NCBI RefSeq assembly: GCF_030818905.1
Contig: NZ_JAUTAZ010000001.1
Coordinates: forward strand, 744,001 to 808,000
DNA from: Microbacterium sp. SORGH_AS_0888
GTDB taxonomy: Bacteria > Actinomycetota > Actinomycetes > Actinomycetales > Microbacteriaceae
DNA: 64,000 bases
Direction: 5' to 3'
Part shown: positions 41,688 to 45,144 of the stretch, in pieces
Layout: each line of letters opens with the position of its first letter
Numbering within the stretch: the stretch's first letter is position 1
Program-made: the position numbers and the translations under genes
The notes under the pieces: generated by a model
Told to the model about the DNA's origin: nothing
The model's input: only the letters and a program-made list of their open reading frames with translations
Databases searched by the model: none

Positions 41688-41712
41688 TGTTGCTGGCCAT
41701 GAGGTTGTTGAC
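41688..41712 (+). repeat. Left terminal inverted repeat
   Basis: Begins TGTTGCTGGCCATGAGG and pairs with 45115-45139 in inverse orientation (18 of 25 positions). On the reverse strand it reads like the last codons of an IS481 transposase (VNNLMASN), as expected because the right end is coding. Confidence 0.75.
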
Positions 41713-41914
41713 AGAAGCGGCTTCTTTTCGGCGGCTTCAGCTGACGTAGCGCGCGTCTCGTCGTGGATGTCGACTACGTGGATGCCTGACGAGCGCGCTC
41801 TTTGGCGTCCCGGGGTGTTGAGTTGCGGATCGCGCTGTTTCGTGCCCGTAGAAGCCGCCATGCTTCCGCTCTCCAGAGCTGATGAGAGGCCAAATTTCTG
41901 CGGGAAAGTCAAAG

Positions 41915-41943
41915 TTGTCTTTGCCGGTTCCAGGCCGCATAGT
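41915..41943 (+). promoter_or_regulatory. Sigma-A-like promoter of helD
   Basis: TTGTCT (41915-41920), a 17-nt spacer, CATAGT (41938-41943), then a GAGGAGGG site and ATG 41971. This is the most canonical -35/-10 pair seen in the window. No rifamycin-associated inverted repeat (GGGGCTT-type) was found near it. Confidence 0.5.
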
Positions 41944-41970
41944 TGACGCCCGACGAGGAGGGCGGCGCGG

Positions 41971-44075
41971 ATGGAAACGGGTATCGGTACGGGCAAGGCG
42001 GGGCAGATCGACGAGGAGCAGAGGTCGCTGGATGCGATGTATTCGCGTCTGGACGCGGAGCTGGCTGGCAGCCTTTCTGCGCGCAAGCGAGTGATGGCCG
42101 CGGGGGTCGATGAGCTGGAGAGTTTCTCTGCCAGGGATCTCGAGGTTTCGCGCCTGACGGAGCGGATCGGTCAGCTGCGATCCGCGGACCAGACGCTGTG
42201 CTTCGGGCGCATCGACCCTGGGGTGGATGGCTCGTCGTTGCATATCGGGCGGATCGGGCTGCGCACGGAAGCAGGAGAGTTGCTGCTGGTGGATTGGCGC
42301 GCGGAGGCCGCACGGCCGTTCTACGCCGCGACGATGGCGTCGCCTTTGGGGGTGCATCGGCGCCGGCATGTGCGGGCGAGTGCGCGCACGGTCGTCGATG
42401 TCAGCGATGAGATTCTCGACGGGGCCGATCCATGCGAGGAGGACGTGGTCGGTGACGGGCCGCTCGTGGCCGCGCTGAGCAGTGCGCGTACAGGGCGGAT
42501 GCGGCAGGCCGCCGCAACGCTGCAGGCGGAGCAGGACGAGATCGTCCGATCGCCGCATCGCGGGATCATGGTCGTCGACGGCGGCCCGGGAACGGGCAAG
42601 ACGATCGTCGCCCTCCACCGTGCGGCGTACGTGCTCTACGCGTTCCCCGCGGTCGCCGAGCAGGGCGTGCTCGTGTTCGGGCCGAACCAGCGGTTCATCG
42701 ACTACATCTCCGATGTGCTGCCCTCGCTCGGCGAGAACGACGTGCGCCTGGCGACGCTACGCGACCTGGTCCGCGTGGAGGCGCCCCGGTCCGAGCCCGA
42801 CGACCTCGCGCGCATCAAGGGGCAAGCAGCTCTCGCGCACGGGCTCGCCCGCTGGGTGCACGCCCGGCAGCCCCACCACATGCCGCTCAACGTGCAGACC
42901 GCGCACGGGACGGTCACCCTCGACCCTGAGCTCGTAGATGCCGCCCGGCGAGGAGCCCTGCAGGGCAGCATTGGACACAACCCTGCCAGGGCGCTGTTCG
43001 CCGAGCGGGTTGTCGAGGAGTTGGTGAACGAACTGGAGCAGCAGACCGCGCGCGAGCTCGCGGACTTCGAGGCCGAGCTCAAGGAGTTCCACGGTGTCGA
43101 CCTCGACCGCATGTTCGGCGGCAGCTCGGATCGAGTCGGCTCGGGAGAAGCCGCCGAAGCGCCGGATGGCCTGGAGATCGACTGGGACCGGATCCGTGAG
43201 GAGCTCCTCGATGATCCTGGCATCGACCGGATCATCTGGGGGTCTGGCCCAGGCTCCGCGCCGAGGACGCCGTCCGGGGGCTTCTCTCGGACCGCGCCGC
43301 CCTGGCTGACGCGCTTCCCGACCTGGCCGAGCGGCAGCTCACGGAGATTGTTGACTCGGCCCGCAGGGGCTGGACCCCGGCCGACCTCGCCCTGCTGGAC
43401 GAGGCGCGGGCGCTGATCGACGGCCCTCCCGAGGCCATCTACGGACACATCGTCGTTGACGAGGCCCAGCAGCTCTCCGAGATGCAGTGGCGGATGCTGA
43501 TGCGCCGCTGCCCTCAGCGCTCCATGACCATCGTGGGGGATCTTGCGCAGGCAGGCCCGACCACGACCATCCGCAGATGGAGTGAAGCCCTCGCCCCGTT
43601 CGCCAGCACCGGCATCGCCCGTCACACGCTGACGGTCAACTACCGCACCACCGCGGAGATCCTCGAGGAGACCCGGCCGCTCCTTGCCCGCATCGCTCCG
43701 GCGCAGCAGCTCTCCCGATCGATCCGGCACGGAGAGCAGCCGATCACCGTCGCAGCCTTCAAAGACGACATCTCAGCTGTGCTCGTCGGGCTCATCTCGT
43801 CCGCCCGCAGCGAGCACCCTGAAGAGCTTGTCGGAGTCATCGCCACCACGGCACGCGCCATTTCACTGGAGACTGAGCTCGACGGTGCCGGGGCCGCCAT
43901 CGTCGCGGCGCCAGACGCACGGGGACTGGAGTTCGACACCGTCATCATCGTCGACCCCGATGGCATCCAAAGCGGGAGCGAAGCGGGCATCCAAGACCTT
44001 TACGTCGCACAGACTCGCGCCACAAAGCGGCTCGCCACCATCATGGTCGCAGAGGTTGGGAACCCTGGTGCATGA
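41971..44075 (+). CDS. HelD/HelR-type RNA polymerase-associated ATPase, with one apparent frameshift
   Basis: UvrD-like superfamily 1 ATPase of about 700 residues once repaired. The N-terminal coiled-coil arm has DEEQRSLDAMYSRLDAELA and the HelD signature IGRIGLRTEAGELLLVDWRA. Walker A is VDGGPGTGKTIVALHRAAY (about residue 205). The DEAQ box is VVDEAQQLSEMQWR, and the late helicase motif is YVAQTRATKRLATI. HelD proteins release stalled RNA polymerase; the HelR branch protects it from rifamycins, but which branch this belongs to needs a tree. The frame changes at 43238-43242: one G is missing from a G5 run (IIWG to VWPRLRAED). The stop overlaps the transposase start (ATGA). Confidence 0.8.
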
Positions 44076-45144
44076 TGAGCAAGTCGCGTGCCATGACACT
44101 CAGCGAACGCCCGCGAGACCGCCGCGCTGGCCCAAGCGCAACGCCAAGCCACAAGAACGCGCCGCTGACTCCGGAAGGCCGAAAACGCCTGGTCGAACGC
44201 TGCCGAGCCCGTCCGATCGCGCATGTGGCCGCGGAGATGGGCATCTCCCGGGCGACCGCCTCAAAGTGGGTGAACCGGCACAAGAAGTACGGCGAGATCG
44301 GGTTGCTTGACCGCTCGTCTGCGCCAGTCCGGCAGCCAACCGCGACGCCCGGCGAGACGGTCGCGCGGATCGAGTCGATGCGGCGCGAGCACAAGTGGCC
44401 GGCATCCCGCATCGCCTTCGAGCTGCACGCTGACGGCGGTGCGGTCAGCCGGCGCACGATCACCCGGTATCTCGCTGAGCTCGGGCTGAACCGCCGCCGG
44501 TTCATCGACCCGAATGGCGAGACCAATCGAGAGGTCAAGTCGATCACCGCGAAGCATCCCGGGCACATGGTCCATCTGGATGTGAGGAAAGTCGGGCGCA
44601 TCCCCGACGGGGGCGGCTGGCGCGTGCACGGGAAGAACAGCCCCGAGGCTCGGGCCGCAGCCCGCGCGAAGACACGAGGCGCCCGAGCCGGGTACGCATA
44701 CCTGCACTCCGCGATCGACGGGCACACGCGTCTCGCATACACCGAGTCGCTCGAGAACGAGCAGGGCCCCACCGCGGTCGCGTTCCTGGATCGTGCCCGA
44801 CAGTGGTTTGCCAAGCACGGGATCGTGAAGATCGAGCGGATCATCACCGACAACGGTGCCTGCTACCGCTCCACCGCCTTCGCGGCCGCCCTGAATGGTG
44901 CCGAGCACCGGCGCACAAAGCCCTACACGCCCGAACACAACGGGAAAGTCGAGCGCTACAACCGCATCCTCGCCGAAGAGTTCGTCTACGCCAGGACCTG
45001 GACTTCAGAGCGTGAGCGCGAGGAGCACTGGAGACCTGGAACCTGCTCTACAACTACCATCGACCCCACGGCGCGCACGGCGGCAAGCCGCCCGTAGCCG
45101 CGACACCTCAACGCGTGAACAACGTCCTGGCCTCATACAGCTAG
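44072..45144 (+). CDS. IS481-family transposase, with one apparent frameshift
   Basis: DDE transposase of about 357 residues. The N-terminal helix-turn-helix is APLTPEGRKRLVERC to ISRATASKWVNRHK. The rve/integrase core carries the first Asp in MVHLDVRKVG, the second in RIITDNGACYRS and the Glu in HNGKVERYNR. The frame changes near 45020-45027 (one base missing after GAGGAG); the repaired end is WNLLYNYHRPHGAHGG and RVNNVLASYS. The stop TAG lies in the target duplication. The N-terminus carries about 26 extra residues before SHKNAPLTP, reaching back to overlap helD by 4 bp. The frame change suggests an indel error or an inactive copy. Confidence 0.85.
45115..45139 (+). repeat. Right terminal inverted repeat
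   Basis: Inverse partner of 41688-41712 and also the last coding bases of the transposase. It is followed directly by the GCTAGA duplication at 45140-45145. Confidence 0.75.

What the first reader, a model, noticed from the sequence alone, without database searches (positions are those of the whole stretch)
41688..45139. IS481-family transposon with a HelD/HelR-type passenger gene
Seen: exact GCTAGA direct repeats next to TGT...ACA inverted ends, one HelD-like gene and one IS481 transposase inside, same strand. Known: IS481 targets NCTAGN; IS481 elements normally hold only a transposase, about 1 kb; HelR proteins displace rifamycins from RNA polymerase. Inference: a mobile element spreading an RNA-polymerase-protecting or recycling factor, possibly a mobile rifamycin-resistance determinant. 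I know of no described IS481 element of this kind.
Basis: partly seen in the sequence, partly recalled or inferred. Interest (0 to 1): 0.85.

Follow-up and report, generated by a model that had tools for sequence, protein, structure and literature searches.

The report
Jumping gene carrying an RNA-polymerase helper
A bacterium carries a small transposon of the IS481 kind with a damaged gene for a HelD-like RNA-polymerase-clearing protein, and the same kind of transposon carries intact HelD genes or other genes such as drug pumps in related bacteria, so it looks like a gene-carrying mobile system rather than a proven antibiotic-resistance element.

Summary
Window 41688-45139 is a 3,452-bp IS481-family transposon with GCTAGA direct repeats, TGT...ACA ends (18 of 25 bases matching), and a helD-type gene and IS481 transposase on one strand. 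Both genes are frameshifted here. Three other hosts have it with intact helD. Actinorugispora endophytica (another order) and Humibacter have both ends and perfect 6-bp repeats; Brevibacterium sp. 239c shares the left border. Their transposases are broken or partly lost. Trees split the four into two lineages, suggesting two captures. Related elements carry other cargo (Cmx efflux, mer genes, SrmL, OsmC, regulators). The HelR/rifamycin reading is weakened: the three intact HelDs lack the primary-channel loop that displaces rifamycin in class II HelD, the two tested miss the NCBIfam HelR cut-offs, and a different promoter element is conserved. Most likely the element spreads a loop-less HelD that recycles or protects RNA polymerase; the inhibitor, if any, is unknown.

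The parts
41682..41687 (.). left target-site direct repeat GCTAGA
   Evidence: sequence; exact match to 45140-45145
41688..41712 (+). left terminal inverted repeat IRL (TGTTGCTGGCCATGAGGTTGTTGAC)
   Evidence: same or near-same sequence at the left border of related elements
41886..41970 (+). helD leader and promoter conserved with relatives: core GTCAAAGTTGTCTTTGCC, putative -35 TTGTCT 41915-41920, 17-nt spacer, -10 CATAGT 41938-41943
   Evidence: (core with at most 3 mismatches in 11 rows, 9 distinct loci; 0 of 1600 shuffled upstreams); promoter hexamers read by eye
41971..43247 (+). helD-type gene, 5' part (N-terminal arm, DWRAEAARPFY motif, Walker A GGPGTGKT); frame lost at about 43235-43250
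43248..44075 (+). helD-type gene, 3' part in another frame (VDEAQ, GDLAQ, C-terminal helicase motifs); stop TGA 44073-44075 overlaps the transposase start (ATGA)
44072..45139 (+). IS481 transposase gene; ORF called to 45097, frame changes near 45020-45040; the intact relatives' frame ends at TAG or TAA in the right direct repeat
45115..45139 (-). right terminal inverted repeat IRR
45140..45145 (.). right target-site direct repeat GCTAGA; its CTAG also supplies the stop codon of the neighbouring YnfA-family gene on the - strand (45141-45563)

Best explanation
The segment is a decayed IS481-family cargo transposon (target NCTAGN, ends IRL/IRR) that moved a helD-type gene, with the gene's own promoter, together with the transposase. 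Shown by sequence: ends, direct repeats, same-strand cargo and transposase, the same left border plus helD in Brevibacterium, and two-ended helD elements with perfect repeats in Humibacter and Actinorugispora. Inferred: a transposase of this kind acts on the two ends and inserts the whole unit at CTAG, leaving stop codons of transposase and target gene usable. In the window the cargo stop overlaps the transposase start by 4 nt, so transposase translation was probably coupled to cargo expression. The cargo product is inferred to enter the RNA polymerase secondary channel and open the clamp like HelD, clearing stalled or inhibitor-bound polymerase, but without the primary-channel loop used by class II HelD/HelR against rifamycins. 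In this host the copy is broken and probably no longer makes a full HelD or a full transposase.
Against: None of the four helD-bearing copies has helD and transposase both intact, and transposition of the helD unit has not been seen. They are rare: a DNA match covering most of the element beyond the own genome in 0 of 294 genus mates and 1 of 395 order mates. An empty site in a close relative could not be shown. In the Actinorugispora copy helD and transposase do not overlap (about 30 bp apart), so coupling is not general. The cellular role is inferred from fold and family only. The two frameshifts of the window copy could be assembly errors. helD relatives without such ends are common: of 100 loci scanned, strong ends (at least 20 of 25 matches with CTAG) occur only at Brevibacterium, Humibacter, Actinorugispora and, around a plain IS beside helD, at L134.
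Confidence: 0.85

Rival explanations
1. Mobile rifamycin resistance: the cargo is a HelR that pushes rifamycins out of RNA polymerase, spread by the transposon.
For: Cargo of related elements includes resistance-type genes such as Cmx efflux and mer genes; HelD of B. subtilis, which has no primary-channel loop, is reported to raise rifampicin resistance through its N-terminal domain (abstract start and passages of PMC12802891). In Brevibacterium an FAD monooxygenase related to rifampin monooxygenase lies about 1 kb past the truncated element (459 bits, cut-off 800).
Against: No primary-channel loop: Walker A-B distance 282 in P0002, 281 in Humibacter, 280 in Actinorugispora, against 308-359 in loop-bearing actinobacterial HelDs. 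M. smegmatis residues 442-513, which hold the tip residues E484/D485 named in PMC10719064, have no counterpart. P0002 and Humibacter HelD are below the NCBIfam HelR cut-offs. No match to the recalled rifamycin-associated element (weak test). Copy broken here.
Confidence: 0.15
2. Chance neighbours: a truncated IS481 insertion sequence landed next to a helD gene, and the left repeat is a solo end.
For: helD genes without ends are common, plain 1.1-kb IS481 copies exist in the same genome and in related ones, and one lies beside a helD relative in L134.
Against: Matching 6-bp repeats at both outer borders; the same left border with helD in Brevibacterium; two more copies with both ends and perfect repeats around helD; no internal IRL found next to the transposase in this element.
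Confidence: 0.02
3. helD is not under selection as a trait: it was picked up as neutral filler, like other genes caught by this transposon group, and decays after insertion.
For: The window copy is broken, and the host has no other HelD found by two searches, so it lives without one; cargo varies among close transposases.
Against: helD in two separate mobile lineages, Ka/Ks about 0.25, intact genes in Brevibacterium, Humibacter and Actinorugispora, conserved promoter core.
Confidence: 0.2

Closest known systems
TnRErm46 (ISRe46, IS481 family) of Rhodococcus equi, PMC6794481
   Same: IS481 transposase at the right end, NCTAGN direct repeats, TGT inverted ends, transposase stop codon supplied by the CTAG repeat, passenger genes between left end and transposase (passages read)
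   Different: 6.9 kb with seven ORFs including erm(46); described as actively mobilised; no helD
Cmx elements of the same transposon group, e.g. on a Microbacterium paraoxydans plasmid (NZ_CP064874); IS5564/Tn5564 of Corynebacterium striatum is a listed IS481 link to cmx (PMC8304765, passages read)
   Same: same ends, NCTAGN repeats, one passenger gene directly upstream of the transposase with a 4-nt overlap
   Different: cargo is a chloramphenicol efflux pump; identity of these elements with Tn5564 not tested
Class II HelD / HelR (M. smegmatis HelD, S. venezuelae HelR)
   Same: overall fold and N-terminal arm, DWR motif, ATPase motifs
   Different: no primary-channel loop, DWRAE instead of DWRAP, separate clade, different promoter element, below NCBIfam cut-offs
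Small HelD variants of Actinobacteria (about 680-720 aa) noted by Larsen et al., PMC8655204
   Same: length, and size difference confined to the arms (passages read)
   Different: in the passages read, no function or mobility is given for them; identity with the present clade not tested

Membership tests
IS481 insertion-sequence family | DDE transposase scoring above the NCBIfam IS481 cut-off | tested here: met
   NF033577 254.5 bits against cut-off 224 for the in-frame part 44072-45019
IS481 insertion-sequence family | NCTAGN direct repeats and TGT...ACA inverted ends | tested here: met
   GCTAGA/GCTAGA, IRL/IRR 18 of 25
IS481 cargo transposon (TnRErm46-like) | passenger gene(s) between left end and transposase within one pair of ends and repeats | tested here: met
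   helD in the window; 27 of 38 two-ended elements, the window included, exceed 1.5 kb
IS481 cargo transposon (TnRErm46-like) | the unit with its cargo found at more than one site | tested here: met
   helD: Actinorugispora and Humibacter two-ended copies, Brevibacterium left border; other cargo: near-identical units at different sites
IS481 cargo transposon (TnRErm46-like) | observed transposition | not testable with these tools
   sequence only; the transposase is broken in the window
HelD superfamily | N-terminal arm with DWR motif plus UvrD-like ATPase, HelD fold | tested here: met
Class II HelD / HelR | primary-channel loop with acidic tip | tested here: not met
   insert 442-513 of the M. 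smegmatis chain has no counterpart in P0002 or Humibacter HelD; Actinorugispora likewise short; the window's own broken gene was not measured across the frame change; class definition read in PMC11464796 (passages)
Class II HelD / HelR | score above NCBIfam HelR/HelD_MYCSM cut-offs | tested here: not met
   P0002 444/1100, 416/750, 408/1051 bits; Humibacter 459/1100, 419/750, 418/1051
Class II HelD / HelR | rifamycin-associated element upstream | tested here: inconclusive
   recalled 19-bp consensus: none in the window, Brevibacterium or Humibacter leaders, but only 1 of 80 helD loci matched at all, so the test is weak
Rifamycin-resistance determinant | changes rifampicin susceptibility | not testable with these tools
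   needs bench work

The most novel reading that the evidence does not exclude
A clade of IS481 transposons in Actinobacteria works as a modular carrier of small stress or resistance operons. It keeps fixed ends and often a transposase whose start codon (RTGA) doubles as the stop of the cargo frame, so transposase expression is tied to cargo expression. It has captured a loop-less HelD at least twice and spread it across orders, which would make this HelD branch a mobile RNA-polymerase protection factor against an inhibitor other than, or by a route other than, classical HelR-rifamycin displacement.
Probability: 0.3. Interest if true: 0.75.

Novelty: new variant of a known kind. Interest (0 to 1): 0.57.

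Why it matters
In the papers whose passages I read, HelD proteins are treated as transcription-recycling or rifamycin-protection factors, and why organisms keep several is called unclear (PMC8655204). A transposon group that carries one HelD branch in four genera means that branch can travel as a trait. That makes the question 'what are extra, small HelDs for' testable: remove the intact mobile gene and look for sensitivity to RNA-polymerase inhibitors. The element group itself, with many swappable cargoes and 99.9% identical copies in different families, is a route of gene spread among Actinobacteria that deserves a census.

Tried and rejected
Tried: IRL pattern and HelD alignment in viral contigs: no relative found. 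Empty-site test: the matches to the YnfA-family gene in relatives did not lie beside def. In the 14 genus mates searched in both (G001-G014), the def and tRNA-Asn matches end 50-97 bp apart in 4 (G008, G010, G011, G012), about 0.7 kb apart in 2 (G001, G004), 2.7-8.5 kb apart in 6 and on different contigs in 2 (G003, G009). No exact empty CTAG site was shown. First structure job with 18 close sequences was poor (pLDDT 55.6) and was not used further. The rifamycin-associated-element scan used a recalled consensus and is weak. A defence role was considered: PADLOC gave only weak UvrD-type hits, best 44.6 bits. Plasmid searches: 164 records match the element, none covers 80% of it; all 85 records with helD matches are under 60% identical. 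In the transposase tree L028, L172 and L192 have very long branches and are fragments or probably wrong-frame rows; their place is ignored. Loci dropped before counts: 16 of 54 given to one search lacked a transposase hit or one end. One search gave no Walker distance for 13 of the 80 loci. The genomic context of most close HelD relatives known only as proteins (P0003 and others) was not seen, so more copies may exist.

Literature: listings show no paper that reports helD or helR inside an IS481 element or other transposon (searches returned none); the ten papers were not opened. The library is open-access only, so this is not proof. Papers opened, passages only: PMC6794481, PMC8304765, PMC10719064, PMC12802891, PMC8655204, PMC11464796.

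Full report
Anatomy. The window carries GCTAGA at 41682-41687 and 45140-45145, just outside a pair of ends, TGTTGCTGGCCATGAGGTTGTTGAC and the reverse complement of TGTATGAGGCCAGGACGTTGTTCAC (18 of 25 alike), so the element is 41688-45139, 3,452 bp. Inside, on one strand, lie a helD-type gene and an IS481 transposase. Both are broken. helD reads in one frame from 41971 to about 43235 and in another from about 43248 to 44075. The transposase frame changes near 45020-45040, after what I read by eye as its D-D-E residues (HLD, TDN, VER). The cargo stop and transposase start overlap (ATGA at 44072-44075). In L009, for example, the intact transposase runs to the stop inside the right repeat. The element sits beside a YnfA-family gene whose own stop codon lies in the same CTAG, between a peptide deformylase gene and a tRNA-Asn.

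Host. The genome is a single 3.64-Mb contig with one copy of this element. It has no other HelD by protein or family search. Three other IS481 copies in the same genome, roughly 40% identical in protein to this group's transposase, share blocks of 1,079-1,088 bp, that is, plain IS size, an internal contrast.

Same unit elsewhere. (1) Actinorugispora endophytica: G1237:C2 has the contig length (376,914) and HelD (100%; 99.9%) of the named protein P0062. It is in another order of the same class. Its element is 3,397 bp: GCTAGG on both sides, IRL with one base changed, IRR, intact 699-aa HelD, and a transposase with one in-frame stop; it matches the window at 73.8% DNA from 41829 to 45147 and again at the left end. 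L192 has both ends, CCTAGC on both sides, an intact 709-aa HelD and only the transposase tail. (3) Brevibacterium sp. 239c (L048) matches at 86% DNA from the CTAG and left end, through an intact 702-aa helD, to about 100 bp into the transposase, where it is truncated; the flanks do not match. Frequency: at E 1e-30, 1 of 57 Brevibacterium and 1 of 5 Humibacter genomes; at E 1e-200 with P0002, 3 of 394 class genomes including the own one; at E 1e-220 with P0062, 1 of 297 genomes of the Actinorugispora order. Of 100 loci, nearly all brought in as helD relatives, strong ends (at least 20 of 25 with CTAG) were seen only at these places and around a plain IS in L134.

Two lineages. In a tree of 80 HelD rows (Actinorugispora not included) and one of 62 rows with it, the mobile HelDs need two changes and starred branches force at least two. 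Window and Brevibacterium group with P0003 (context unseen); Humibacter and Actinorugispora are sisters (100/96) near the end-less helD of Microbacterium arabinogalactanolyticum. DNA agrees: window and Humibacter align at the ends, over helD with about 85 bp of leader, and over the transposase tail; Humibacter helD with about 70 bp of leader matches M. arabinogalactanolyticum at 79%. Two captures are the simplest reading; one older capture with later escapes is not excluded.

The transposon group. Of 54 loci given to, 38 had both ends. Of these, 24 have identical 6-bp repeats, 31 have CTAG on both sides, and 27 exceed 1.5 kb (Actinorugispora was found later and is not counted). Cargo by family search of 28 proteins: a Cmx-type efflux pump (479.8 bits, cut-off 400), SrmL PheS-related ligase (517.8, cut-off 300), HxlR plus DUF1761, GntR plus OsmC, MerR plus serine hydrolase, MerR plus a pyridine-nucleotide oxidoreductase plus MerB, a TipAS-domain MerR regulator, HxlR plus short-chain dehydrogenase, TetR plus MFS, and others; 5 of the 28 had no Pfam hit at E 1e-5 (L159:5762, L160:5977, L166:1574, L170:1360, L173:1485). 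Copies with the same cargo are 99.9% identical between two families (L013, L167, L193), 99.5% between a plasmid and a genome (L156, L169) and 99.6% between two genus mates (L160, L161), the identity ending at the CTAG borders. In the transposase tree the window groups, some forks weakly, with L010, L154, L166 and L009, which carry GntR/OsmC, HxlR/DUF1761, a GntR-aminotransferase regulator with another gene, and HxlR/DUF1761. A 4-nt overlap between a long upstream frame and the transposase start was found in 13 of 23 testable elements. About half of the 13 share the Cmx-type cargo, so they are not 13 independent cases, and the Actinorugispora copy lacks the overlap.

Regulation. A core GTCAAAGTTGYCTTTGCC with at most 3 mismatches lies upstream of helD in 11 rows, 9 distinct loci (window, Brevibacterium, Humibacter and end-less relatives), against 0 of 1,600 shuffled upstreams, and with 2 mismatches in Actinorugispora. 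Other relatives match worse (5-7 mismatches; for example L050, L051, L054), and L011, L016 and L018 did not reach the 4-mismatch limit. It overlaps a putative -35 box. helD was therefore probably captured with its own promoter. The recalled rifamycin-associated element was not found, but that test is weak.

Function. Ka/Ks between window and Brevibacterium helD is 0.25-0.27, so the gene was under purifying selection for much of that divergence. The best-supported role is RNA-polymerase clearing or protection through the secondary-channel arm and clamp opening; this is inference from fold. Rifamycin displacement by the loop route is not supported. A loop-free route cannot be excluded, because B. 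subtilis HelD, also without the loop, is reported to protect against rifampicin (PMC12802891, abstract start and passages).

Known or new. IS481 cargo transposons are known: TnRErm46 (PMC6794481, passages) has the same architecture, and its printed 20-base inverted repeat equals the first 20 bases of the left end of the plain element L177. helD as cargo was not found in the searches listed under Tried and rejected. I class the finding as a new variant of a known kind.

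Noticed in passing
L134 (G820), 94-1200: A plain 1.1-kb IS481 element with related ends lies about 300 bases from a helD relative (70% DNA); repeats CCTAGT/GCTAGT are 5 of 6. Possibly the raw situation from which capture could start.
   Followed up: no
L019 (G138), element of 2,358 bp (1506-3863 of the locus): An IS481 cargo element with perfect repeats carries an SrmL-type PheS-related ligase (517.8 bits, cut-off 300).
   Followed up: partly
L160 and L161 (G280, G232): 5.5-kb elements with perfect repeats; in L160 a MerR regulator, a pyridine-nucleotide oxidoreductase and MerB were identified: a compact mercury-type IS481 transposon, 99.6% identical in two genomes.
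   Followed up: partly
L048 9181-10626: FAD monooxygenase related to rifampin monooxygenase (459 bits, cut-off 800; better fit PRK06834, 805 bits, cut-off 625) about 1 kb beyond the truncated helD element in Brevibacterium.
   Followed up: partly
model m67863b541613, residues about 384-404: The modelled loop-less HelD has a poorly ordered acidic insert elsewhere in the arm, not at the primary-channel-loop site; whether it reaches the RNA polymerase active site is unknown.
   Followed up: no
window 41632-45602, def to tRNA-Asn: The interval between def and tRNA-Asn varies from under 100 bp to several kb among genus mates, so it may be an insertion hot spot.
   Followed up: partly
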